The translations under genes were made by a program, and so were the position numbers. Under the pieces are notes generated by a model, which searched no databases, had not been told where the DNA came from, and was given only the letters and a program-made list of their open reading frames with translations. Positions 2,058 to 13,137 of a stretch of DNA of 13,938 nucleotides are shown here, one piece after another; positions within the stretch are counted from its first letter, which is position 1; every line of letters starts with the position of its first letter. Source of the DNA: a bacterium (GTDB taxonomy: Bacteria; JAMCPX01); contig JAJYUJ010000050.1 in assembly GCA_021792615.1 (NCBI GenBank), positions 1-13,938 of the forward strand. The letters are read 5' to 3'.

Positions 2058-2267
2058 ATGGTTTATTTCAATCTTGTGCCAGGGAGACAAAATAATGGTC
2101 AGAAAGGACAGGGCATGACAGAGTACATCCTGATCGTCCTGCTCATAGCCATCGCGCTCATCGCCGCGTTCGGTGTATTCCGGGACAAACTTATCAAAGG
2201 CGTTCAGACCGCAAGCAGCCAGATAGAAAACGTAACAACCAAGAGCACCAGCGGGAACAACAATTAA
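2058..2267 (+). CDS. flp: Flp-type IVb pilin precursor
   Basis: This is the major structural subunit of the Tad/Flp pilus, 69 residues. A basic leader of 17 residues ends in Gly17. The mature protein would begin QGMTEY, with the obligatory Glu at +5 followed by Tyr. This is the prepilin-peptidase site and Flp motif of the family. Residues 24-44 form the hydrophobic stalk helix (ILIVLLIAIALIAAFG), followed by a short polar Ser/Thr/Asn-rich tail. The length is typical of Flp pilins. The start is fixed by AAGGAGG 5 bases upstream. It heads the pilus cluster, and a 150-base gap separates it from the next gene, which would allow it to be expressed at a higher level. The processing peptidase is not in this window. 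Confidence 0.95.
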   Translation: MVYFNLVPGRQNNGQKGQGMTEYILIVLLIAIALIAAFGVFRDKLIKGVQTASSQIENVTTKSTSGNNN

Positions 2268-2295
2268 CTTAAAACACGGACAGGAGAGCTGTAAC

Positions 2296-2439
2296 TTGAA
2301 AACGATCATCACGGGAGTATCTGCACAAGTTATCCGCGAACCAAAAAAACATCTGGGTAACAGAGAACAATACAGGGGCCGGATTTCCCTGCCCTTGATA
2401 AAAAAATACTTCATTCTATGTCAGAAACATATAAATTGA
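2296..2439 (+). CDS. Doubtful 47-codon ORF between flp and the first TadE-like gene
   Basis: A frame starting at TTG (2296) lies 9 bases after AGGAG (2282-2286). It runs to TGA at 2437-2439 and overlaps the next gene's start by 22 bases. The product would be basic and has no signal or motif I recognise. The only support is the ribosome-binding site and the spacing. It may simply be leader sequence of the next gene, whose own ATG has no clear ribosome-binding site, so coupling from this frame is conceivable. Confidence 0.15.
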   Translation: MKTIITGVSAQVIREPKKHLGNREQYRGRISLPLIKKYFILCQKHIN

Positions 2440-3248
2440 AAAACAAAACAAGCAGCTGTAGGGGCGATTCTGCAAATCGCCCTGATTTGGAATGCGGCCA
2501 GACCATGGTGGAGTTTGTGGTTGCATTCCCGCTTGTGCTCATCACGGTTCTTGCCATCGTTCAACTATCCCTGCTTGCCCAGACAAAACTCTTTGTTGAA
2601 TACGCGGCCTTCAATGCCGCAAGAACAGCAATCGTCCAGCCGGATAACCTAGACGATATCGCTGAATCGGCAAAATTATCTATGACGCCCATATCGCCAC
2701 GCGTTGATGCAATGGCCGGGTTGTCCGTAGTATCAGGTGTTTTTAACAATATTGCAGACATATTTGGAGACGCAGGCACCCTGCTTTTGCGGTATGCATA
2801 TGCAAAACAATTTACTGATGCAAAGATTGTAATAAACCCGTCACAATCCAATGATGACATTACCGTGCATGTGGATTATCTTACCCTGCTTACAATTCCC
2901 CTTATCAACAAAATCATCGGCACAAAAGCGTCCGGCATCTTAACCATGCTGTCAAACTACGCAGGAGCGGATAACAACTGGATAACTGCTCTCTCGTCAA
3001 TCATCGGTACCGACTATTTCTATCCTTTATCTTCCGAAGTAACACTAAGCAACGAGGCTTTGCATGAGCCGCTCCCGGCCGATCCGTCGCAATGCACCTA
3101 CAGCTATACAGATAACCAGGGTATAAAACATACCTATACAAATGACGAGGTATATCAGTCAGGCACGTATAAAAACGGCAGACCACAGTACCATACGGAT
3201 AAAGACAAAACCGGAATCAGCAGGATCGTACACCAGGAGTGTCTGTGA
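2418..3248 (+). CDS. TadE-like pseudopilin / minor pilin
   Basis: This is a 276-residue TadE-type protein of the Tad pilus. After a 27-residue leader, the sequence G^QTMVEF is a prepilin-peptidase site with Glu at +5. It is followed by a hydrophobic helix at 34-54 (VVAFPLVLITVLAIVQLSLL) and the conserved-looking AAFNAARTA stretch that follows the helix in TadE proteins. Residues 90-276 are extracytoplasmic, with no motif I recognise. TadE proteins are cleaved pseudopilins needed for Flp pilus assembly. The leader is unusual: residues 14-22 are encoded by a short palindromic repeat (2461-2483). No clear ribosome-binding site precedes the ATG. A TTG at 2487, after the repeat, would give a four-residue leader and is less likely. 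The stop overlaps the next gene's GTG. Confidence 0.85.
   Translation: MSETYKLKNKTSSCRGDSANRPDLECGQTMVEFVVAFPLVLITVLAIVQLSLLAQTKLFVEYAAFNAARTAIVQPDNLDDIAESAKLSMTPISPRVDAMAGLSVVSGVFNNIADIFGDAGTLLLRYAYAKQFTDAKIVINPSQSNDDITVHVDYLTLLTIPLINKIIGTKASGILTMLSNYAGADNNWITALSSIIGTDYFYPLSSEVTLSNEALHEPLPADPSQCTYSYTDNQGIKHTYTNDEVYQSGTYKNGRPQYHTDKDKTGISRIVHQECL
2461..2483 (+). repeat. Short palindromic repeat inside a pilin leader
   Basis: GGGCGATT (2462-2469) and AATCGCCC (2475-2482) form an 8-bp perfect inverted repeat around a 5-base loop. The surrounding TGTAGGGGCGATT...AATCGCCCT resembles a dispersed intergenic palindrome common in many bacterial genomes, which typically encodes CRGDS-like peptides when read through. 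Here it is translated as residues 14-22 of the 2418-3248 protein. Only one copy is visible in this window. Confidence 0.6.
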
Positions 3249-4696
3249 GCATAATAAAATTCCGGTACAGTTCTCATGGAGAACAAGGACAGGCTATAGT
3301 TTTTGTTGTGATCACTCTTGTAACATTACTTATATTTATTGCTGCAGTTGCTAATGTTGGCAGGGAGCTTTCCTACAAAATGGATATGCAGAATACAGCG
3401 GACAGTGCTTCCATGGCAGGTACAGTCTGGGAGGCTCGCGGACTCAATCTTATAGCGGGTCTGAATCAGGGTATTGTTCTCACGGTTGAATTGATTATTA
3501 TCATCGTAGCGGCTATTGCGATATTAGCTGTGTGTTCGGCCACCTTATGGTGGGCCGGTATTGGTGAAGCATGTGCCACTGCGCTTCCCGTGGTTTTGAA
3601 CTTTGCCAATAATGCTATTCGGAGACTGTGGAATACAGCTGTCGAAATGTCAAAGCTCGAAGAAAAAATTGCCAAAAACTTTCCCTATATGGTTCCTGTA
3701 GCTGTTGAACTTGCAAGTGGAGCAAACCAGAACAGTCCTATATCCATTCCGTATCCCTATCAGCCATCCGACAGCGTACCGCCGCCGCTGACGCCGCAGT
3801 CAATCTCTCTGAATGTAGAGAAAGGGAATTTTCAGGACATGATAAGCGCTATAATGAAGGAAATAAGCAAAACGATTGATAAGATCTTTCCCTTATTGTC
3901 TCAGGCTTTGGGATTGCTCGGAAAAGCAATAAATCCTGGCTCACTTTCTTCGAATGGATCTATTGCAACGACATTTAATGATAGTCACAGCTATGATAAT
4001 TACCCGCAGGCCGTAGATGCGAACACCAAGGCGCATGAACCTGCCGGCTCAGTATCAGGTGTCACCAGTACAAAGAAAGTTCATGCAGACTGGTTTTATA
4101 TTACCACCGATTATAACGACCCGGATCCCTGCAATAATTGTTCAGTTTCTGTGAAAAAGCAGAGCTCCTGCAATAAAATATTGTGGAACAAAGATGAAGC
4201 GCCGACAGAGAAAATATCTTCATATTTTGTAAGCTGTATTGTTAAAAATTGCGGTAACAGTTCCGGAGAAAGTGCAGGAAGCGCCGTATCTACTCCCTTA
4301 AAAGTGCAAGACTTTTGCAGGCTTGACCTGTCCGTGAAAACAACCACAAAAACAAGCGCACCTTCACAACTGCCGGTCCCGATGAAACTGCATCCGCGGG
4401 CTGAAGAATTTCTTTTTATGGCAGTCGCTACGACAGACCTTGGCAAGAAAAGACCGCCGGTATTCATCAGCAACAAAAACCTACTCCCTGAAGATAAAAA
4501 TCCTTGGGGCTTTGTTGCACTTTCCCAGTCAAGACCTCAAAGTCCAAGCACAAAACCAGGTGATATTCTACTGGAGATGGATTGGGATGCACATCTTACC
4601 AGATTCACTGCTTTGAAGGCTATTGCACAGCAGATCGGACTAAAATCTTCTAATAGTATCATGAAGTATATAGATGAGAAACTCATTCTACATTGA
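3245..4696 (+). CDS. TadG-like pilus assembly protein
   Basis: The start is taken as the GTG at 3245, which overlaps the upstream stop (GTGA) and has AGGAG 5 bases upstream. An in-frame GTG at 3239 would overlap that ribosome-binding site. The product has 483 residues. Residues 12-38 (EQGQAIVFVVITLV...) match the TadG N-terminal type: a Gly-Gln followed by a long hydrophobic helix, without the Glu of true prepilins. It is followed by MDMQNTADSASMAG, like the 'adaAA' segment after the helix in TadG proteins. A second hydrophobic segment lies near 78-103 (ELIIIIVAAIAILAVC) and extends to a WWAG turn. The rest is extracytoplasmic, with six Cys between residues 296 and 358 that could form disulfides. 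TadG proteins anchor or control pilus assembly in the envelope. No von Willebrand-type metal site is evident. Confidence 0.75.
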   Translation: MSIIKFRYSSHGEQGQAIVFVVITLVTLLIFIAAVANVGRELSYKMDMQNTADSASMAGTVWEARGLNLIAGLNQGIVLTVELIIIIVAAIAILAVCSATLWWAGIGEACATALPVVLNFANNAIRRLWNTAVEMSKLEEKIAKNFPYMVPVAVELASGANQNSPISIPYPYQPSDSVPPPLTPQSISLNVEKGNFQDMISAIMKEISKTIDKIFPLLSQALGLLGKAINPGSLSSNGSIATTFNDSHSYDNYPQAVDANTKAHEPAGSVSGVTSTKKVHADWFYITTDYNDPDPCNNCSVSVKKQSSCNKILWNKDEAPTEKISSYFVSCIVKNCGNSSGESAGSAVSTPLKVQDFCRLDLSVKTTTKTSAPSQLPVPMKLHPRAEEFLFMAVATTDLGKKRPPVFISNKNLLPEDKNPWGFVALSQSRPQSPSTKPGDILLEMDWDAHLTRFTALKAIAQQIGLKSSNSIMKYIDEKLILH

Positions 4697-5391
4697 TGGA
4701 CCACGGAGTTTATGAACGAGATAATGAGAAAGCTAAACAGACAGGTGATTCGGTGAATCGCGCCGTCATTCCTACAAAAGTTGGGACCCGGTTTTTAAAG
4801 AGATCCCTTCTAGATTCTCGTTTACACGGGAATGATAATAAAATAGTAAGAGCGACGGGGCAATCCGTAACGGAATTTATCATCGTATTCCCTGTGCTTT
4901 TGCTCATGCTGTGCAGTGTGATCTTTTTTGCGAGGATGCTCGTATTAAAACAGCGATCCGTGACGGCCGTGCGCTATATTGCATGGTACGCTGGAAGGAA
5001 TGGAGGCAATGAGCCGTCTCAAGATACGATAAAGGCTCTGTTTTTTAATAAAAGCTCTGAAATCGCCATAACACATCCGGCACCAAGTATCGGTTTTGCC
5101 GGTAATTCTCTTGGTGATCTCGGAAGTGTGCTGGGCAGTGTGGCAGGTATCAATGGGACTGCTCTCCGAGTAAAGGGAGACCATTATCCGTTCTCACAGC
5201 AAAAATCCAGTACCGGTTCACAGCATTTTTTATTTATGGATACATGGAAGGATAGTGGCGTTACTGGGAAGGCGTTGAAGTACGGTCTCTGGGCTATTGC
5301 TGTGGCAAAAGGTTTTCAAAATGGGAGCGGCAGTAATAATGGTGGAAATAACAGCATTGATCTTGAAAATCCATCTATCTTCGGTAACTAA
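4696..5391 (+). CDS. Second TadE-like pseudopilin with repeat-derived leader
   Basis: The product has 231 residues from the ATG at 4696, which overlaps the upstream TGA. An in-frame TTG at 4693 is an alternative start. The leader is long, 55 residues, ending Ala-Thr-Gly55. It is followed by ^QSVTEF with Glu at +5, then the hydrophobic helix at 61-82 (IIVFPVLLLMLCSVIFFARM) and a short TadE-like segment (RYIAWYAGR). Residues 24-48 come from a 74-base palindromic element (4764-4837), giving AVIPTKVG and LDSRLHGND peptides typical of that repeat family when translated. The C-terminal 140 residues are Gly/Ser/Asn rich with no motif seen. As with other TadE proteins, it is probably processed by prepilin peptidase and acts in pilus assembly or at the tip. 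The next gene starts one base after the stop. Confidence 0.8.
   Translation: MDHGVYERDNEKAKQTGDSVNRAVIPTKVGTRFLKRSLLDSRLHGNDNKIVRATGQSVTEFIIVFPVLLLMLCSVIFFARMLVLKQRSVTAVRYIAWYAGRNGGNEPSQDTIKALFFNKSSEIAITHPAPSIGFAGNSLGDLGSVLGSVAGINGTALRVKGDHYPFSQQKSSTGSQHFLFMDTWKDSGVTGKALKYGLWAIAVAKGFQNGSGSNNGGNNSIDLENPSIFGN
4764..4837 (+). repeat. Degenerate 74-base palindromic element inside a pilin leader
   Basis: The ends CGTCATTCC (4764-4772) and GGAATGATA (4829-4837) form terminal inverted repeats with one G-T-type mismatch. Inner arms (GGGACCCGG and CTAGATTCTCG) are degraded forms of the same symmetry. This is the widespread proteobacterial dispersed repeat whose canonical ends are GTCATTCCCGC...GCGGGAATGAC. 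Here it is fully inside a coding frame and encodes about 25 residues of leader. The degradation suggests it is an old insertion. Confidence 0.75.
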
Positions 5392-5392
5392 C

Positions 5393-6106
5393 ATGGGCAA
5401 GCGACACAGAAATCATATACGATTCATACTATTGGTCTTTTTGCTTGTTAATTTATTTTTTGTATCCAAAAGCAAAAGCACATTCTACGACCTGTTTTCT
5501 TCCGAAACTACCTTCGATAACATGCCGCACAACACACTGCATTTTAAAGTGAATGGTCAAAATATGGATCTGCTTGTCCGGAATCAGGACGATTATGGAG
5601 CACTGCTTTCAAAGGTGCGCAACAACAAATCGCTTCCATTTTATCGTGACAAAAACGGCGGACTGTCCGTGCATGTGCATGGAGGTATTGACAAAGAAAG
5701 ACTGTCCTCGCCCGGCGCACTCATGTCCATGCTAGAGCCTCTCATGGGCTTTGTAAACGGGCGTTCCACAAAATACGTAAGTCTGCGGCTCGACAAAGGG
5801 TTTGATGCAAGCAGGTTTTTAGACACCGCTGTCCATGACTCTGAAGACCTTCCTGTTTATCCGTCTGCCGAAAAAATAAATATCCTGCAAACAAAACAAT
5901 TCTGCCTGGGCCATTACAAGGCACAGGCAACCGCGAGCGCAGTTCTTGTTTATTATGATTCCCGGCTCAAATCCCAAGGTTATAAAAAATTACGAGAGGC
6001 GAATGGTATGGCACTGTATCAATCCGCCATGCGACTGATGATAGTAAACGTGGAAGAGGAACCTAACTATGTTTCAATCATTACCTATACTGTCAAAAAA
6101 AAATAA
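5393..6106 (+). CDS. Unrecognised membrane-anchored protein of the tad cluster
   Basis: The ATG at 5393 lies one base after the upstream stop and gives 237 residues. The frame is open further upstream to 5297, but that would overlap the TadE-like gene by 95 bases. Residues 11-27 are a single hydrophobic segment (FILLVFLLVNLFFV) after a basic start, so this is a signal anchor with the body outside the cytoplasm. Residues 150-235 have the pattern DLPVYPSAEK ... LGHYKA ... VLVYYDSRLKSQGYKKL, which I recognise as the layout of a small alpha/beta domain found in many uncharacterised secreted proteins (Pro-x-Tyr-Pro-x-Ala, then a Tyr-rich helix and a Gly-Tyr/Trp turn). The function is unknown. Its place between two pseudopilin genes suggests a periplasmic accessory of the pilus. 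Confidence 0.75.
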   Translation: MGKRHRNHIRFILLVFLLVNLFFVSKSKSTFYDLFSSETTFDNMPHNTLHFKVNGQNMDLLVRNQDDYGALLSKVRNNKSLPFYRDKNGGLSVHVHGGIDKERLSSPGALMSMLEPLMGFVNGRSTKYVSLRLDKGFDASRFLDTAVHDSEDLPVYPSAEKINILQTKQFCLGHYKAQATASAVLVYYDSRLKSQGYKKLREANGMALYQSAMRLMIVNVEEEPNYVSIITYTVKKK

Positions 6107-6245
6107 TGGCCAGGCTATGGTGGAATACCTGCTTGTTACCGCTGTTCTTTCGATAAGCGCAGGAATAGCTGTGAAAATGTTCGGTACTGCACTATCGGCT
6201 TATTTTAGCTTTCTAGCGGCATTTATTGCCCTCCCCATACCATAG
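6069..6245 (+). CDS. 58-residue Flp-like pseudopilin
   Basis: A small gene starts inside the end of the preceding one (38-base overlap), with GAGGA (6054-6058) 10 bases ahead of its ATG. The product has a short basic leader ending Lys-Lys-Asn-Asn-Gly14. The site ^QAMVEY follows, with Glu at +5 and Tyr at +6 exactly as in Flp pilins. The helix LLVTAVLSISAGIAVKMF comes next, then an unusually hydrophobic tail (FSFLAAFIALPIP). Unlike the flp product, it has no polar tail and the C-terminal half is nonpolar. It is therefore probably a minor pilin or membrane-resident pseudopilin rather than the filament subunit. It sits 8 bases before cpaB. The prepilin site, ribosome-binding site and tight packing together make it a convincing gene despite its size. 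Confidence 0.8.
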   Translation: MFQSLPILSKKNNGQAMVEYLLVTAVLSISAGIAVKMFGTALSAYFSFLAAFIALPIP

Positions 6246-6253
6246 GAGAAAAT

Positions 6254-7042
6254 ATGAAACTTGAAAAGAATAAAAAATTACTCCTAGGAATTGCGAGCGG
6301 GATAATCGCGATTATACTGGTTCAACTTTATCTTGCTGCCTTCAGACATGCTGTTTACAGCGAACTTGAGACGATTGATGTGCTTGTAGCAAAAACGGAT
6401 ATAAAACCAGGCTCGATTATTACAAAAAATAACCTTACATCAATGCCTCAACCAAAGCGGTATCTGTCTCACAATACAATTCAGCAGAAAGATCAAGATG
6501 CCGTGATCGGTCATAGGGCAGTCATGCAGGCGGAAAAAGGAGAACCTCTTCAATGGACAATGCTTGGAGCGGCAAAAGGCTCAGGGTTTACCTCCTTGAT
6601 AAAGGAAAATGAAAGGGCAATATCTATTGCAGTTGACAACCAGAGCAGCGTATCAGGTTTGATAAGACCGGGAGATCATGTGGATATTCTCGGTACTTTT
6701 TCATTTCCGGTATTAAGCGGGGCAACAAAACTTGCAACAATTACCCTGCTTCAGAATGTTACGGTGCTTGCAACGGGAGGAATATGGGGAAGAGGACTTC
6801 AGGAATCAGAACCTTATAATTATACCAGCTTAACGCTTGCTGTTTCAACAATAGAAGCAGAACTCCTTACCTTCGCGTCTGAAAGAGCAAGATTAAATTT
6901 CGTTTTAAGAAATGCAGACAATATACAAGCAGAAGAAAACCTGCCGGTTGTAGGATGGGAAAACATCATGAAGATCGGTAATCTGAAACAGATTCAGCAT
7001 GAGCGAAACATCAGGGTAATAAAAGGCAGGGGCGGGGAATAG
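6254..7042 (+). CDS. cpaB: Flp pilus assembly protein CpaB/RcpC
   Basis: This is a 262-residue periplasmic component of the Tad secretion apparatus. AGGAG lies about 7 bases before the ATG. Residues 8-29 form an N-terminal membrane anchor. Residues 40-105 form an SAF-type domain: VLVAKTDIKPGSIITKNNL, then GHRAVMQAEKGEPLQ, the hallmark order of CpaB proteins. Residues 110-255 carry the RcpC-type region with AISIAVDNQSSVSGLIRPGD and VDILGTF. The usual LTLAVS strand follows before the helical end. CpaB is thought to contact the secretin in the periplasm and affect its assembly. The gene is complete, with typical length and gene order (cpaB then cpaC). Confidence 0.95.
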   Translation: MKLEKNKKLLLGIASGIIAIILVQLYLAAFRHAVYSELETIDVLVAKTDIKPGSIITKNNLTSMPQPKRYLSHNTIQQKDQDAVIGHRAVMQAEKGEPLQWTMLGAAKGSGFTSLIKENERAISIAVDNQSSVSGLIRPGDHVDILGTFSFPVLSGATKLATITLLQNVTVLATGGIWGRGLQESEPYNYTSLTLAVSTIEAELLTFASERARLNFVLRNADNIQAEENLPVVGWENIMKIGNLKQIQHERNIRVIKGRGGE

Positions 7043-7047
7043 GGAAA

Positions 7048-8313
7048 ATGGGTAAGAATATACCCTCCGGGTCATATGCGGCCTATTTTCTTTTTTGTTT
7101 GCTCGTCTTGATGCCACCTATCGCGTATGCTGATCAAAACATCATCTCCCTGGTGCAAGGACAAAGCAGGGTCATAGAGCAGCCAAACATAGCAAAAGTT
7201 GCAATCGGCGATGCGACCATAGCAAGTGTAAAGGTCATAAACAGCAGTCAAGTTATGGTCACGGGTATATCAAGAGGTATAACGAACCTTTCTCTATGGC
7301 AGGTCTCTGGTAAAAAGAAAGATTTCACGATACGGGTTACCGTAGAAGACATTAAGCTTGTTGCTTTCGACGTTAAGGAACTTCTGCATGATATCGAAGG
7401 TATAAAAACGAATGTCATTGGCAATAGGGTCGTACTCGAAGGCCAGGTAATAAAGGCCGATGATTACGATAAGATTGAAAAAGTGATTTCTCTGTATCCC
7501 CAGGTAATAAATTTTGTAAAAAAGAACAACGTGCGCCTCGATAAGATGGTACAGATAGATGTCAAGATGATGGAGGTTGATAAAGGGTTTGCGAAAAATA
7601 TCGGAATTGGCTGGCCTCAAACAATTTCTCTATCATCAGAATTCAAAGGTGCGTATCCGGCACTCGACAACCAAGCCCGTATAGGTGCCTTTTCTATTGC
7701 AGGCTCTATTCTCTCTGATTTCGGTTTTGTCTTTAATCTGATGGTTGCCAATAATCTTGGAAGGGTTCTCAGTAATCCTGTGCTTGTCTGCCGCTCAGGC
7801 GATCAAGCAAGCTTCATTGCAGGCGGAGAGATCCCGATACCAAGCACGTCAACTTTGGGGCAAACGAACGTGAATTGGAAAGAATTCGGCGTGATCCTTA
7901 ACATACAGCCTGCAACGGATGAATTTAACAATATAAGTCTTAAAATACACGCAGAGACAAGCGACATCGATATGGCAAATGCTGTTTCTGCGAACGGTAT
8001 TAATCTGCCTGCATTTGTAACAAGAAAAACGGAAACCGTTGTGAATCTTACACAGGGCGAGACACTGGTTATGTCGGAGCTTTTAAGTGATAAAGGGTTT
8101 AAAAGTGTTGCAAAGTTTCCTTTATTGGGAAGCATACCGATTATAGGTGAGTTGTTTAAATCCAGAAAATACCAGTATGCACAATCACAATTTCTGGTGT
8201 TTATAACGCCGGCAATCATAAGGCCCGGCAGTATAGATACGACAAGGATAAAGGAGATGAACCGGAGATATAATGATGCCGGCAAATCTCTGGGGTACGA
8301 TCCATTAGACTAA
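7048..8313 (+). CDS. cpaC: Tad pilus secretin CpaC/RcpA
   Basis: This is the outer-membrane channel for the Flp pilus, 421 residues. The signal peptide spans 1-28 with cleavage after Ala-Tyr-Ala. Residues 30-100 form the pilus/T3SS-type secretin N-domain (VQGQSRVIEQPNIAKVAIGD, then GITNLSLW). Residues 103-165 form a BON-like segment (VIGNRVVLEGQV). Residues 168-400 form the secretin core. It contains VQIDVKMMEVDKG, the LSNPVLVCRSGDQASFIAGG and IPIP motifs, and the late FPLLGSIPIIGELF motif (357-370) shared by secretins, ending in FLVFITPAIIRP. The start is six bases after cpaB with AGGGAA upstream. Length and domain order are normal. No dedicated pilotin is seen, although the lipoprotein at 1445 is a conceivable partner. 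Confidence 0.95.
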   Translation: MGKNIPSGSYAAYFLFCLLVLMPPIAYADQNIISLVQGQSRVIEQPNIAKVAIGDATIASVKVINSSQVMVTGISRGITNLSLWQVSGKKKDFTIRVTVEDIKLVAFDVKELLHDIEGIKTNVIGNRVVLEGQVIKADDYDKIEKVISLYPQVINFVKKNNVRLDKMVQIDVKMMEVDKGFAKNIGIGWPQTISLSSEFKGAYPALDNQARIGAFSIAGSILSDFGFVFNLMVANNLGRVLSNPVLVCRSGDQASFIAGGEIPIPSTSTLGQTNVNWKEFGVILNIQPATDEFNNISLKIHAETSDIDMANAVSANGINLPAFVTRKTETVVNLTQGETLVMSELLSDKGFKSVAKFPLLGSIPIIGELFKSRKYQYAQSQFLVFITPAIIRPGSIDTTRIKEMNRRYNDAGKSLGYDPLD

Positions 8314-8314
8314 T

Positions 8315-9982
8315 ATGCTTGAGATAGAAATTACTAAGAAGGGCACAAAAATACTTACGACAACAATACAGTTACAAGCTGTTATAGGCAGGTCACCGGA
8401 TGTTGATGTCAGGCTTGATGATACCCTGTGTTCAAGAAAACATCTCAAGATATTCAAGCAGGACGATATGTGGTTCGCAACCGATATGAATAGCTCGAAC
8501 GGTACATTCTACAATGAGCGTCGTTTGTTGGAATCCGTTGTTCTTCATGAAGGAGACAAGCTAAAAATTGGTTCGTACGAGGTTTTTGTCAAACAAATCA
8601 TGAACAAAACAGAGGGTAATGGATCGCAGGGACTTCCGGCAGATGAAACGATGGCTTCCGATCCGGTGTCTGGACCTGTTTTATCTTATTCTTTTCAGCA
8701 ACACTTAATCACGGAAAAACTGGATAACCTAAAACAAGAGATACACCGGCAGTTACTTGATGAACTTGATCTTAAAAATATCGATCTTTCGAAGCTAAAA
8801 ACATCCGAGGTAAAATATAAGGCTACCGAGGCTGTAAAGAGTATTATAGCTAAATTAAAAACGGACAACATCTTAGACACCCCCATAGATGAAGCAATCC
8901 TGCTTAAGGATGTTATTGATGAAGCCCTTGGCCTTGGTCCAATAGAGACTTTGCTTGAGAATAAATCTATAACCGAGGTTATGATAAATGCCAAAGATCA
9001 GATTTACATCGAGGAAAGCGGCAAACTTCAAAAGACTCAATTAAGGTTTTCGTCCGACAGGGCTGTCATGAGTGTTATCGAGAGGATCGTTTCACCCATA
9101 GGAAGGAGGATAGACGAGAGTTCCCCGACAGTAGACGCCCGGCTAAAGGACGGCTCAAGAGTGCATGTAATAATACCGCCGCTTGCGATAAAGGGTCCTA
9201 CAATTACTATAAGAAAGTTTTCAAAAACGCCTTATGTCATTGACGATCTTATAAAGTTTGGATCTTTAACGGAAAAGATGTCGGAATTTTTAAAAATAGC
9301 AATCGGAACTCGGAAAAATATCATTATTTCCGGCGGGACGGGTTCCGGGAAAACAACGCTGCTCAATGTGCTTTCAAATTTTATTACGCAAGACGAACGC
9401 ATATTGACTATCGAGGATGCCGCGGAGCTGAAACTAAATCAACCGCACGTTGTTGCCCTTGAGGCAAGACCTGCGAACATTGAGGGCAAGGGTGCGATAA
9501 CCATCAGGGAGCTGGTACGCAATGCACTGCGCATGAGGCCTGACAGGATTATTGTTGGTGAGTGCAGGGGCGGGGAGGCACTTGATATGCTTCAGGCTAT
9601 GAATACAGGCCATGACGGCTCACTCACGACGCTGCATGCCAATAGTCCGAGAGACGCACTCTCAAGGCTGGAGACCATGGTTTTGATGTCCGGTATGGAG
9701 CTCCCCGTCAAGGCGATACGCGAGCAGATAAAGTCGGCCGTTGATCTCATTGTCCAGCAGACAAGGTTCAAGGATGGCATTCGACGAATATCGGCTATTA
9801 CCGAGGTCCAAGGTATGGAAGGCGACACCGTGGTACTTCAGGACATTTTTGCGTTCGAGGCCGGTGAGATCGATCAAGCCGGTAAAATAACGGGCGGGTT
9901 TAAACCAACAGGCTTTGTTCCGAAGTTCGTAGAAGAACTACGCGCACACCGGATCGATGTACCTCAGGAGATCTTCCAGTGA
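8315..9982 (+). CDS. cpaF: FHA-domain fusion of the pilus ATPase CpaF/TadA
   Basis: This is the hexameric cytoplasmic ATPase that powers Flp pilus assembly, 555 residues. Residues 1-100 are a forkhead-associated domain with its key residues in place: Gly25-Arg26, Ser40-Arg-Lys-His43 and Ser60-Ser-Asn-Gly-Thr64. These predict phosphothreonine binding. A linker and N-terminal helical domain (125-200) lead into the CpaF ATPase core. The Walker A motif GGTGSGKTT is at 340-348. IIVGECRGGEA (Walker B region, Glu416) precedes the His box TTLHAN (His441). CpaF proteins lacking the fused domain are about 100 residues shorter. FHA fusions suggest that ATPase activity or location responds to Ser/Thr phosphorylation. 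The start is one base after the cpaC stop with no ribosome-binding site of its own, so translation is probably coupled. Confidence 0.95.
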   Translation: MLEIEITKKGTKILTTTIQLQAVIGRSPDVDVRLDDTLCSRKHLKIFKQDDMWFATDMNSSNGTFYNERRLLESVVLHEGDKLKIGSYEVFVKQIMNKTEGNGSQGLPADETMASDPVSGPVLSYSFQQHLITEKLDNLKQEIHRQLLDELDLKNIDLSKLKTSEVKYKATEAVKSIIAKLKTDNILDTPIDEAILLKDVIDEALGLGPIETLLENKSITEVMINAKDQIYIEESGKLQKTQLRFSSDRAVMSVIERIVSPIGRRIDESSPTVDARLKDGSRVHVIIPPLAIKGPTITIRKFSKTPYVIDDLIKFGSLTEKMSEFLKIAIGTRKNIIISGGTGSGKTTLLNVLSNFITQDERILTIEDAAELKLNQPHVVALEARPANIEGKGAITIRELVRNALRMRPDRIIVGECRGGEALDMLQAMNTGHDGSLTTLHANSPRDALSRLETMVLMSGMELPVKAIREQIKSAVDLIVQQTRFKDGIRRISAITEVQGMEGDTVVLQDIFAFEAGEIDQAGKITGGFKPTGFVPKFVEELRAHRIDVPQEIFQ

Positions 9983-10830
9983 TACTCTTGATGCTCGGTG
10001 CTGCACTATCGGCAGGTATAAGCGTGTTTATTATTGTTTTTGAAGGTATTGCATTCCTTGAACAGGGTGCTGACGTGTATAGGGAGAAGGTCGAAAACCA
10101 GGTCAAAGAGCTTGATGAACTTTATATAAAGATGGTGCCGCAAAAATTGTTTTATCTCAACATCACTTCGTGCTTTCTGATGTTTGTCCTTGTCTCCATC
10201 CTTACATCCAGCATCCTTTTAGGCGTGTTGTGCTCTCCGTCCGGTTTGTTCATATCGAAACTTTGGATCAAATTCATGCGCATGAGACGCCTCAATCTGT
10301 TCAACGAACAATTCTTAGATGCAATTGGTGTTATCAGCAACGCATTAAAATCGGGACTTTCGCTCCAGCAGGCACTTGCCCGGGTGGCGTTGCAATATCC
10401 TGCACCATTGTCGCAGGAATTATCCATGATCAGTAAGGAGGTCGCACTCGGAGTTCCGCTTGAACGTTCACTGCTCAATATATGCAAAAGGGTTGAAAGC
10501 GAAGACCTCGATCTGTTTGTGACCGCAACGAGTGTTGTAAAAGATACCGGCGGCAATCTGTCCGAGATGTTTGATACAATCGCAGACACACTTCGCGAGC
10601 GCAATACCATCCGGGGGAAAATAAAGGGTTTGACGGCACAGGGGCGCATGCAAGGCATTGTCATCGGGATTATGCCGGTTGCACTCGGGTTTATCCTTTA
10701 CAAACTTGACCCGAACCTTATTATGCCCCTGTTCAATGACCCGATTGGCTGGGCTATCCTGTTTATAATTGTGCTGTTCGAGGCCATTGGGGCGTTCTTC
10801 ATAGCCAAGATAATAAGGATAGATGTATGA
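9979..10830 (+). CDS. tadB: Inner-membrane platform protein TadB
   Basis: This is one of two GspF-related polytopic proteins forming the inner-membrane platform on which CpaF acts, 283 residues. It starts at a GTG overlapping the cpaF stop, with AGGAG about 9 bases upstream. Hydrophobic segments lie near 1-22, 55-80, 226-244 and 258-278. The cytoplasmic T2SF domain lies at about 110-235: FNEQFLDAIGVISNALKSGL, then LSQELSMISKEVALGVPLE and the GGNLSEMFDTIADTLRER block typical of TadB. The length is standard. The stop overlaps the ATG of tadC (ATGA), indicating coupled expression of the two platform subunits. Confidence 0.93.
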   Translation: MILLMLGAALSAGISVFIIVFEGIAFLEQGADVYREKVENQVKELDELYIKMVPQKLFYLNITSCFLMFVLVSILTSSILLGVLCSPSGLFISKLWIKFMRMRRLNLFNEQFLDAIGVISNALKSGLSLQQALARVALQYPAPLSQELSMISKEVALGVPLERSLLNICKRVESEDLDLFVTATSVVKDTGGNLSEMFDTIADTLRERNTIRGKIKGLTAQGRMQGIVIGIMPVALGFILYKLDPNLIMPLFNDPIGWAILFIIVLFEAIGAFFIAKIIRIDV

Positions 10831-11702
10831 GGATATTTTATATTGTACTGGCAAGCCTTTCCATCGGCTTATGCGGGTATATGACAGTAACAGCGTTACT
10901 TGATATGGATGCGGTGAAAGAACAGGGCAGGATGAAACCAGATCGTGAAGCATGCATGAGATCTCCCCTGTACAGGCTTTTCGTAAAGACAGCGGGCTTT
11001 ATGATAAGCATGCATCCAAAGAAGGATAAATTATCCGGCTATTTCATCAGGGTGAAGAAGCGGCTTTTGCTTGCAGGTGAACCGCTTTACCTGATGCCGG
11101 AGGAGTTTTTAGCGCTTAAGGAACTTGCAGCTTTTTGCATGATAGTTATCTCGCTGGCACTCGGCTTCTCGATGAGCATTACTCTTATCCTTTCTGTTGC
11201 CGGATTTTTTTATCCGGACTTGTGGTTACGAGAACTCTATAAGAAACGGAGGGCAGCGATACTCAAGGAGCTTCCGTACATCCTTGACCTGCTGACCCTG
11301 TCCATCGAAGCAGGTCTTGATCTGACGGGCAGTGTGAGCAGGGTGGTCGAGAAATCAAAAAAGGGCATACTCAGTAAAGAGCTGTTTTATTTTTTGCAGG
11401 AACTCAAGATGGGAAAAGCACGCAAGCAGGCCTTGACCGACATGGCAGGACATGTGGGTGTGCCGGAGGTCACTTCGCTCGTCAATGCGATCATCCAGAG
11501 CGATGAGCTCGGGTCCGGGCTTGGCAGGACGCTGAGGATACAGTCGCAGGAATACAGAACGCGGCGGTTCCAACGTGCGGAGAAGCTCGCCATGGAGGCG
11601 CCTGTGAAAATGACCTTCCCGCTTCTGTTCATCTTCACCGCGGTCTTCCTCCTGCTCTTCGGCTCGTTTGCAATACAGGCAATGCGGGGGAAGCTGTTTT
11701 GA
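10827..11702 (+). CDS. tadC: Inner-membrane platform protein TadC
   Basis: This is the second GspF-like platform subunit, 291 residues. Membrane segments lie near 2-24, 90-130 (a hairpin) and 264-288. The T2SF domain lies at about 145-265 and has the features of TadC: ELPYILDLLTLSIEAGLDL, ELKMGKARKQALTDMA, then AIIQSDELGSGLGRTLRIQS and the RAEKLAMEAPVKMTFPLLF block before the last membrane segment. It starts within the tadB stop codon. It is the last recognisable pilus gene. No prepilin peptidase, TadZ/CpaE or TadD gene follows, and no clear terminator is seen before the next gene 55-91 bases downstream. Confidence 0.93.
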   Translation: MRIFYIVLASLSIGLCGYMTVTALLDMDAVKEQGRMKPDREACMRSPLYRLFVKTAGFMISMHPKKDKLSGYFIRVKKRLLLAGEPLYLMPEEFLALKELAAFCMIVISLALGFSMSITLILSVAGFFYPDLWLRELYKKRRAAILKELPYILDLLTLSIEAGLDLTGSVSRVVEKSKKGILSKELFYFLQELKMGKARKQALTDMAGHVGVPEVTSLVNAIIQSDELGSGLGRTLRIQSQEYRTRRFQRAEKLAMEAPVKMTFPLLFIFTAVFLLLFGSFAIQAMRGKLF

Positions 11703-11744
11703 CATTATGGCTCTTATGAATAAAATGTCGTTATGCATATTGAA

Positions 11745-11773: not shown

Positions 11774-11793
11774 ATTTACTAAAGGATAAACCA

Positions 11794-12270
11794 ATGTCTA
11801 ACTACAAAGTTTTTATAAGTTATTCTGTGAATAAAAGCGAAATGGTTGTGGTATGGAGGCTGCAAACATTGGGCGCTGCCCACGGCTTAACTGTTTATGT
11901 TCCTGACAGACAAAAAGGGAAATCCCTCTTGTTATCTGAAGCAGCAAAAGGTCAAATAGATAATTCAGATTGTGTAATAGCATTTTTAACAAGGGATATA
12001 TCAGAGGAAGTACAGTTAGAACTTAATTATGCGGTAACAAAGCATAAGAAGGTCATATATATAGTAGAAAAAGGAATTAAAATAACAACGGCCACGGGTG
12101 ATAATGTATTCTATTTTGATCCACTTACAGGTTTACCCGGACAAGTAGAAAAGGAAGTTATAGAATACCTTACAAAAGAACGTGTTAAAAAAGCAGACGG
12201 CCAGGCTGTTGGCTTGTTAGTCGGCATAGGTATAGGTCTTTTTTTGCTATTTGCACTAAGTAAAAAATAA
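11794..12270 (+). CDS. TIR-like domain protein with C-terminal membrane anchor
   Basis: The product has 158 residues from the ATG at 11794, which has AAAGGAT 7 bases upstream. An in-frame ATG at 11758 would add 12 residues but has no ribosome-binding site. Residues 4-120 look like a TIR domain: a KVFISYS first strand and loop (6-11), a predicted second strand TVYVPD followed by RQKGK, Glu49 in the following helix (a candidate NAD-cleaving residue), then NSDCVIAFLTRDIS and a QLELNYAV segment. TIR proteins act in immunity, often by cleaving NAD. Residues 134-155 form one hydrophobic membrane helix with a Lys-Lys end, placing the TIR domain in the cytoplasm at the membrane. The TAA overlaps the PIN gene's ATG by one base. 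Family assignment is from motif pattern only, and other Rossmann-like nucleotide-binding folds are possible. Confidence 0.6.
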   Translation: MSNYKVFISYSVNKSEMVVVWRLQTLGAAHGLTVYVPDRQKGKSLLLSEAAKGQIDNSDCVIAFLTRDISEEVQLELNYAVTKHKKVIYIVEKGIKITTATGDNVFYFDPLTGLPGQVEKEVIEYLTKERVKKADGQAVGLLVGIGIGLFLLFALSKK

Positions 12271-12773
12271 TGGGGAAAGCTATAGCAGTTATAGATAGTT
12301 CCTGTGTTATAGGACTATTGCACCTTAAGCTTCTGGATAAACTCAACTGGCGATACAATACAATTTATATTCCTGGCAATGTAAGAAGAGAAATATCCAA
12401 AAAGCGCGATGCGCGAAATAAATTAAAGAAGCTCATGAATAAATACGGAATCACAAAATGCAATGCATATGATGCAGCAAGTTTAAAATTATTATTAGTC
12501 GATGAACATATTGGGTCTGGAGAGGCGGAGGCTATAATACAGGCAAGAGAAAAAAATGCCGGAACCATTTTTATAGATGAGAAAAAAGCCAGAAAAATAG
12601 CAGAAAGACACGGCTTACAGACTAAAGGTATTTTAGGTTTATTGTTAGACCTTAAAAGGGTAGGAGAAATTAAAACAATAAAGCCTTCAATTTTAAAATT
12701 ACAGCAACGGGGTTTTCGGTTTGATCAAACTTTATATAAACATATCTTACAACAAGCCAGTGAGGATGCATAA
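12270..12773 (+). CDS. PIN-domain putative ribonuclease (DUF3368-like)
   Basis: This is a 167-residue protein with the order of a DUF3368-type PIN domain. It starts AIAVIDSSCVIGLL (Asp9), then has YIPGNVRREI (Glu41), IGSGEAEAI (Glu85) and GTIFIDEKKARKIAE (Asp103). The helix TKGILGLLLDLKRVGEI follows near 115. The four acidic positions fit the metal-binding site of PIN nucleases, which cut RNA in many toxin-antitoxin modules. DUF3368 genes are usually preceded by a small UPF0175-type antitoxin. None is visible here, and the preceding gene is the TIR-like one, overlapping by a base (TAATG), so the two are co-translated. There is no ribosome-binding site of its own beyond AAGTAAAAAA. The sequence is AT-rich (22 G+C of 60 at 12481-12540 by hand), unlike parts of the pilus genes. 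Confidence 0.75.
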   Translation: MGKAIAVIDSSCVIGLLHLKLLDKLNWRYNTIYIPGNVRREISKKRDARNKLKKLMNKYGITKCNAYDAASLKLLLVDEHIGSGEAEAIIQAREKNAGTIFIDEKKARKIAERHGLQTKGILGLLLDLKRVGEIKTIKPSILKLQQRGFRFDQTLYKHILQQASEDA

Positions 12774-12774
12774 A

Positions 12775-13137
12775 GTGCAGAATAATAATTTAGGTGCTCG
12801 CATTTCACTGGAATAACTTGTAGCAATTGGAGCGATAAAGCGGCCCGATAAAAACTACAGAAATAATGTTTTTACGGAGGCTGGCTCAGATAATTCGCCG
12901 GCAGATTTTAGTTTTGAACTTGGTTGGTTGTATACTGAACAAGATTTCAGGAGACAAGGCATAAGTAAAGACATCGTGTTGCAATTACTCGCTAAGGTTC
13001 CCAAAAAAGCTATTTATGCAACAACCAGACACGATTATATAGCATCTTTTCTGAAACAATTCGGATTTATCAAATCCGGTTCGTGCTATAAATCAAAAAG
13101 AGGGGATTACAAGCTTGCCCTATTGATAAAAAACTGA
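12775..13137 (+). pseudogene. Broken GNAT acetyltransferase
   Basis: The frame from 12775 to TAA at 13135-13137 reads like a GNAT acetyltransferase but is interrupted by TAA at 12814-12816 and lacks its N-terminal part. After the stop it reads LVAIGAIKRPDKNYR, then FELGWLYTEQDFRRQGISK, the central strand plus acetyl-CoA-binding loop (R-R-Q-G-I-S), then AIYATTRHDYIASFLKQFGF and KLALLIKN, which are typical of a small GNAT family. About 35-40 N-terminal residues expected for the family are missing, replaced by 13 residues directly after the PIN stop. A rescue start at TTG 12928 would give only 69 residues and half a domain. It is therefore probably an inactive remnant, perhaps truncated when the TIR-PIN segment arrived. 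Confidence 0.65.

What the first reader, a model, noticed from the sequence alone, without database searches (positions are those of the whole stretch)
11794..12773. TIR-membrane protein and PIN nuclease pair as a candidate compact defence cassette
Seen: a TIR-like domain with a C-terminal membrane helix overlaps by one base (TAATG) a complete PIN-domain protein with four acidic active-site positions. Known: TIR domains act as NAD-consuming effectors or signal makers in bacterial immunity, and DUF3368-like PIN proteins are usually toxins beside a UPF0175-type antitoxin, which is absent here. Inference: the pair may be a two-gene abortive-infection or toxin system in which one domain senses or restrains the other. 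I do not know of a named system with exactly this pair.
Basis: partly seen in the sequence, partly recalled or inferred. Interest (0 to 1): 0.7.

Follow-up and report, generated by a model that had tools for sequence, protein, structure and literature searches.

The report
Membrane-anchored TIR enzyme with toxin-type RNase
Two small overlapping genes encode a membrane-tethered TIR enzyme, of the kind bacteria use to sense infection and burn NAD, and a toxin-type RNA-cutting PIN protein; the same pairing, or close variants of it, turns up in about ten distant, mostly uncultured lineages, so it is probably a real and so far unnamed stress or anti-virus module rather than a chance neighbourhood.

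Summary
Window 11794-12270 encodes a 158-aa TIR-family protein with one C-terminal membrane helix; its stop codon overlaps by one base (TAATG) a 167-aa DUF3368-type PIN protein with all four acidic positions. Pfam and a confident model (pLDDT 85; Z 14 to TIR domains) keep the first protein in the TIR superfamily. The exact pair recurs in a genome of another phylum (L046; about 42% and 38% identity). Other DUF3368 PINs follow a UPF0175 antitoxin (12 of 13 upstream neighbours); here the TIR protein holds that position. The window protein is a divergent member of a compact, tail-anchored TIR family found in about 22 loci from some ten phyla. In 15 of them a PIN or HEPN RNase gene follows; no PIN or HEPN neighbour was found beside 23 generic TIR genes. 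The commonest form is an undescribed three-gene operon: TIR, antitoxin-like protein, PIN. No library searched names it. It most likely works as an abortive or toxin-type unit joining NAD cleavage to RNA cleavage. The operon linkage is well supported; mechanism and phage defence are inferred.

The parts
11699..11726 (+). promoter-like site TTGACA-16-TAAAAT (11 of 12) ahead of the pair, overlapping the end of the last pilus gene
   Evidence: consensus match only; 8 sites found against 5.3 expected in the scanned region, so weak
11781..11786 (+). Shine-Dalgarno-like AAAGGA, 7 nt before ATG 11794
   Evidence: sequence read; supports the start at 11794, as does the family alignment
11794..12270 (+). 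compact TIR-family protein, 158 aa, C-terminal membrane anchor
   Evidence: TIR_2 34.6 bits, cut-off 28; AlphaFold model pLDDT 85, pTM 0.78; Z 14.4 to TIR of RPV1, 14.1 to NAD-bound RUN1 TIR, 14.1 to DNPH1
12019..12021 (+). Glu76 (GAA), aligned with the TIR/N-glycosidase catalytic glutamate; the only invariant column in 22 family members
12205..12261 (+). C-terminal transmembrane helix, residues 138-156
   Evidence: hydropathy 2.47 over 19 residues; similar tail in all 22 relatives; long helix 116-157 in model
12270..12773 (+). DUF3368-type PIN nuclease, 167 aa; active-site acids D9, E41, E85, D103
   Evidence: Pfam DUF3368 44.2 bits; PADLOC candidate PDC-S70 116.8 bits; conserved acids
12294..12296 (+). 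codon of PIN Asp9 (IDSS motif)
12576..12578 (+). codon of PIN Asp103 (FIDE motif), invariant in 15 sequences

Best explanation
The pair is a probably acquired two-gene operon of a wider module, 'tail-anchored TIR plus toxin-type RNase'. Proposed mechanism: in resting cells the TIR protein sits at the inner membrane through its C-terminal helix, with the TIR domain in the cytosol, and is made in step with the PIN RNase by translational coupling. In this variant the TIR protein takes the place of the usual UPF0175 antitoxin, so it is likely to bind the PIN protein and hold it inactive. Infection or membrane stress makes the TIR domains cluster; they cleave NAD (Glu76), and the PIN RNase is freed or switched on and cuts RNA, so the cell stops growing before the invader can spread. 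Shown here: gene structure, family membership, intact active-site residues, membrane tail (predicted), recurrence of the pair, absence of the antitoxin. Inferred: binding, restraint, trigger, NAD cleavage, RNA cleavage, defence.
For: Exact pair in another phylum (L046): TIR 42-44% and PIN 37-38% identical, 1 nt apart. The two TIRs form a supported clade (99/97) and the two PINs group (92/96), as expected if the pair was inherited together. DUF3368 PIN relatives elsewhere sit behind UPF0175 (12 of 13 upstream neighbours), an antitoxin family for PIN toxins (PMC2701414). In the wider family the RNase partner changes while the TIR-anchor gene stays: Y-PIN in 11 loci, DUF2281(VapB)-PIN in L037, HEPN in L041. 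Generic TIR loci show none (Fisher p from 5e-7 to 2e-4 by how the control is counted). The catalytic Glu is the sole invariant column of 22. GC is 35% against 44% for the contig, GC3 27 against 43-61, and four same-genus genomes (80-87% complete) lack matches to either protein. SpbK shows that TIR clustering drives NAD cleavage and abortive infection (PMC12847820).
Against: No experiment. The window TIR is divergent: the WVxxE motif has lost its Trp, and nucleotide N-glycosidases (DNPH1, MilB) match its fold about as well as TIR domains, so the substrate could be another nucleotide. No defence genes flank it in the window. Only two examples of the exact TIR-DUF3368 pair were found. The TIR gene survives without an RNase next door in several loci (L024, L031, L034, L045, L050, L051). 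Restraint of PIN by TIR is argued from gene position only. The association counts are dominated by one TIR-Y-PIN subclade; with it collapsed to one event the Fisher p is only 0.007-0.045.
Confidence: 0.4

Rival explanations
1. The RNase and, where present, its antitoxin only stabilise the cassette (addiction), while the TIR-anchor protein is the working cargo, for example an anti-phage NADase; the two proteins never touch.
For: The RNase partner varies in family while the TIR is constant, and the TIR gene is sometimes kept after the Y-PIN part has decayed (L031, L034). The TIR-Y-PIN units look mobile: shared ends and insertion inside housekeeping operons.
Against: Addiction needs an antitoxin, and window and L046 have none beside the PIN gene. 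The one-base overlap suggests dosage coupling.
Confidence: 0.25
2. TIR makes a nucleotide signal from NAD, as Thoeris ThsB does, and the PIN protein is its receiver effector, activated by that signal.
For: Invariant glutamate; ThsB similarity of the family (28.4 bits to PF08937 for L022; best PADLOC ThsB model 40.6 bits).
Against: The PIN protein has no added sensor domain; receivers in known Thoeris carry SLOG, macro or TM parts (own knowledge). A soluble signal does not need a membrane anchor.
Confidence: 0.15
3. Two separate effectors of one stress operon, both active, with no restraint of one by the other; control lies in transcription or in NAD level.
For: Promoter-like site of its own (weak); both active sites intact.
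Against: Unrestrained PIN toxins are normally harmful (own knowledge), and a one-base overlap argues for coupled dosage.
Confidence: 0.13
4. Chance neighbours: an orphan PIN toxin gene that landed next to an orphan TIR gene.
For: Both are common accessory gene types; only two exact pairs seen.
Against: Recurrence with both genes diverged to about 40% identity and the same order and spacing; no PIN/HEPN neighbours at control TIR loci.
Confidence: 0.05

Closest known systems
UPF0175 (COG2886)-DUF3368 PIN type II toxin-antitoxin pair
   Same: Same PIN subfamily, same gene order (partner gene, then PIN) and overlapping start.
   Different: The antitoxin gene is replaced by a TIR-membrane protein; window and L046 PINs have a lysine-rich stretch where the others carry a conserved W(I) motif.
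Thoeris ThsB and other bacterial TIR NADases (SpbK)
   Same: TIR fold and catalytic glutamate; compact single TIR domain.
   Different: C-terminal membrane tail; no ThsA partner; PADLOC ThsB model E = 0.011 for the window protein.
VapBC toxin-antitoxin modules
   Same: The wider family has TIR followed by an antitoxin-like gene and a PF01850 PIN gene; L037 has a VapB-like (DUF2281) gene.
   Different: An additional tail-anchored TIR gene leads the operon; the usual middle protein matches no Pfam, NCBIfam or PADLOC model.
PADLOC candidate PDC-S70
   Same: The window PIN matches over its whole length (116.8 bits).
   Different: The model also matches UPF0175-linked PINs; it denotes a PIN family, not this pair.

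Membership tests
TIR domain superfamily | profile match above curated cut-off | tested here: met
   TIR_2 34.6 bits, cut-off 28; relatives L022 and L024 76 and 63 bits
TIR domain superfamily | TIR fold | tested here: met
   Z 13-14 to plant TIR domains over 121-132 residues, with equal Z to DNPH1/MilB N-glycosidases of the same broad fold
TIR domain superfamily | catalytic glutamate | tested here: met
   E76 lies in the sole invariant column of 22
TIR domain superfamily | NAD cleavage | not testable with these tools
   needs a biochemical assay
Thoeris | ThsB match plus a ThsA partner gene | tested here: not met
   ThsB_TIR 13.5 bits, cut-off 21.2; next gene is PIN, and no ThsA-like gene was seen in the window
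DUF3368-UPF0175 toxin-antitoxin | DUF3368 PIN toxin with active-site acids | tested here: met
DUF3368-UPF0175 toxin-antitoxin | UPF0175 antitoxin directly upstream | tested here: not met
   the upstream gene is the TIR protein; no UPF0175 match
DUF3368-UPF0175 toxin-antitoxin | toxicity relieved by partner | not testable with these tools
   needs an expression assay
compact TIR-anchor plus RNase module (described here) | about 160-aa TIR with C-terminal membrane tail, RNase toxin gene downstream | tested here: met
compact TIR-anchor plus RNase module (described here) | antitoxin-like middle gene Y (commonest form) | tested here: not met
   absent in window and L046; present in 13 loci, truncated in two of them

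The most novel reading that the evidence does not exclude
A new class of prokaryotic immune or stress module in which a tail-anchored TIR enzyme serves as the sensor and control subunit (in effect a membrane antitoxin) of interchangeable RNase toxins (DUF3368 PIN, VapC-like PIN, HEPN), linking NAD cleavage to RNA cleavage in one response.
Probability: 0.3. Interest if true: 0.85.

Novelty: new variant of a known kind. Interest (0 to 1): 0.62.

Why it matters
Toxin-antitoxin modules and TIR NADases are two large families of bacterial self-sacrifice machinery that are usually described apart. An operon family that keeps one membrane-tethered TIR gene while its RNase toxin changes would show them working as one unit, and would offer a small, easily cloned system to test whether a TIR protein can act as an antitoxin. 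It also gives a concrete handle on defence in candidate phyla known mainly from metagenomes.

Tried and rejected
Close relatives of either protein in plasmids and phage records (window TIR only) and in IMG/VR: none. Plasmid hits to a central family member covered only part of it and were generic TIR proteins, and the middle protein had none. Thoeris membership: rejected, below cut-off and no ThsA. Sequence search of solved structures: no informative hit. Middle protein Y as a UPF0175 relative: no support (hhalign probability 0.2%). Structure of Y: model too poor (pLDDT 44), not used. Mobile-cassette ends around the window pair: no inverted repeats beyond chance (p about 0.78), so the cassette ends seen in TIR-Y-PIN relatives are not claimed for the window. 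Rfam: nothing in window, L029, L036, L040, L046. Papers with both TIR and PIN terms describe unrelated neighbourhoods (for example a Rhodococcus equi element with a TIR protein and a separate MerR-PIN operon); no named TIR-PIN system was found in the held library, which lacks most subscription journals. The genome collection could be scanned only once, with narrow patterns, so the counts are lower bounds.

Full report
What is there. The window is an entire 13,938-bp contig (C15) of a 2.54-Mb genome. Its first 11.7 kb carry a Tad-type pilus locus (secretin, FHA-T2SSE ATPase, two T2SSF proteins). After a 91-bp AT-rich gap come the two genes of the finding, then a broken GNAT acetyltransferase remnant and an AlkD-like DNA alkylation repair gene that runs to the contig end. 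TIR is 11794-12270 and PIN 12270-12773, overlapping by one base as TAATG. The start at 11794 is preferred to 11758: AAAGGA lies 7 nt upstream, and the homologues start at the matching residue. GC is 35.3% for the pair against 44.3% for the contig, and GC3 is 27 against 43-61 for the neighbouring genes. Four same-genus genomes, each only 80-87% complete, have no match to either protein. The pair therefore looks acquired.

First protein. TIR_2 scores 34.6 bits (cut-off 28); the nucleoside deoxyribosyltransferase families stay below their cut-offs. Its relatives L022 and L024 score 76 and 63 bits to TIR_2. An AlphaFold model from 15 sequences has pLDDT 85 and pTM 0.78. Its closest solved folds are TIR domains (RPV1 Z 14.4, NAD-bound RUN1 Z 14.1) and the related N-glycosidases DNPH1 and MilB (Z 13-14). 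Both groups cleave N-glycosidic bonds through a glutamate (own knowledge). The corresponding Glu76 is the only invariant column in 22 family members, although the window protein has lost the tryptophan of the usual WVxxE motif. All 22 end in a hydrophobic stretch of about 19 residues and a short polar end: a C-tail membrane anchor, by prediction only.

Second protein. DUF3368 PIN, 44.2 bits; PADLOC phage-defence candidate PDC-S70, 116.8 bits. That model also hits UPF0175-linked PINs, so it names the PIN family and does not by itself show defence. Four acids are in place: D9, E41, E85, D103.

Does the pair recur? Yes. A genome of another phylum (G386, locus L046) has a TIR of 157 aa, 42-44% identical, followed 1 nt later by a DUF3368 PIN of 153 aa, 37-38% identical. 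The TIR gene there overlaps the end of an Eco57I-type restriction-modification methylase. The TIRs of window and L046 form a clade with support 99/97, and the PINs group with 92/96. Co-inheritance over such divergence is the strongest argument for a working unit. By contrast, 12 of 13 genes found upstream of other P0002-like PINs match UPF0175, the antitoxin family reported for PIN toxins (PMC2701414). Here the TIR gene holds that slot, and no antitoxin candidate was seen nearby in either genome.

The wider family. One genome-collection scan and several whole-genome searches gave about 22 non-redundant loci of compact tail-anchored TIR genes. Named records include Nitrospira, Nitrospinae, Planctomycetota, Elusimicrobia, Acetothermia (Bipolaricaulota), WOR-3, Desantisbacteria, Aerophobetes and Chloroflexi. 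In 11 loci the next two genes, mostly in overlapping frames, are a protein 'Y' of about 93 aa (consensus; no Pfam, NCBIfam or PADLOC match) and a PF01850 PIN of about 132 aa. Y has the size and position of an antitoxin. In L037 its place is taken by a DUF2281/VapB-type protein. In L031 and L034 Y is truncated and PIN is gone, as expected if PIN cannot be kept without Y. In L041 the partner is a HEPN protein (57 bits). In L002, from the window's own family, a 147-aa protein and a small protein that I read as HEPN-like (no Pfam match) follow, with a HEPN-nucleotidyltransferase pair upstream. L024, L045, L050 and L051 have no RNase next door. Overall 15 of 22 have a PIN or HEPN gene as first or second downstream gene. 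As a control I took 23 generic TIR loci from the same searches: none of their 25 co-directional neighbour ORFs matched PIN or HEPN. Fisher p is 5e-7 if all 23 control loci are counted, 7e-6 for the 17 with any neighbour, and 2e-4 for the 11 with a downstream neighbour. Most positives belong to one subclade; with that subclade collapsed to one event the p-value is only 0.007-0.045. At least three separate partner types remain.

How it most likely works. Best supported is an abortive or toxin-type unit: a membrane-tethered TIR N-glycosidase, most likely an NADase, coupled to a toxin RNase. In the TIR-Y-PIN form, Y would be the antitoxin and TIR a sensor or second effector. In the window form, with no Y and no UPF0175, the TIR protein itself is the best candidate for holding PIN in check. 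This PIN subtype also differs from UPF0175-linked ones in a lysine-rich stretch after E41 in place of a W(I) motif, a possible contact site. SpbK sets the precedent for activation by TIR clustering during phage infection (PMC12847820). Steps shown: gene order, recurrence, domain identity, intact active sites, predicted membrane tail. Steps inferred: binding, restraint, trigger, both enzyme activities, defence.

Known or new. None of Pfam, NCBIfam and PADLOC names the pair or the three-gene operon (PHROGs was not run), and ten paper searches found no description; the library lacks most subscription journals, so an earlier mention cannot be excluded. The parts are known kinds and the combination appears to be a new variant, hence the novelty rating.

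Noticed in passing
L029:5950-6080, 5424-5484, 3935-3980; L036:3954-3975 and 5156-5176; L040:880-925 and 2065-2150: Several TIR-Y-PIN operons share conserved ends outside the ORFs: 5' TTATACGCAAAGCCGTGCCTA and 3' TAGGCACGGCACAGCGTATAA are inverted repeats (86% over 21 nt in L036). L029 holds a further gene bounded by similar but gene-specific inverted repeats, and an imperfect palindrome of about 90 nt that resembles an integron attC site. They may be mobile gene cassettes; no integrase was looked for and Rfam has no match.
   Followed up: partly
L032:3470-6823; L036:2353-6525: The TIR-Y-PIN cassette sits co-directionally inside housekeeping operons: between genes that read as 2-oxoacid:ferredoxin oxidoreductase subunits in L032, and between nuoB/nuoC-like and nuoD-like genes in L036 (beside a HicB-like gene), read by eye.
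   Followed up: no
window 12780-13137: GNAT acetyltransferase remnant broken by stop codons between PIN and the AlkD-like gene (weak PF13508/PF13673 matches).
   Followed up: no
window 2058-11702: Tad/Flp-type pilus locus with several short pilin-like or TadE/F-like genes; the pair sits directly after its last T2SSF gene.
   Followed up: no
L004:209-1971: TPR protein whose C-terminal part reads as a UPF0175 domain, directly upstream of a DUF3368 PIN gene.
   Followed up: no
L028 and L029: The same cassette region with the same neighbours lies in contigs labelled Methanobacteriaceae archaeon and bacterium from one sampling series; likely a binning error in one of them.
   Followed up: no
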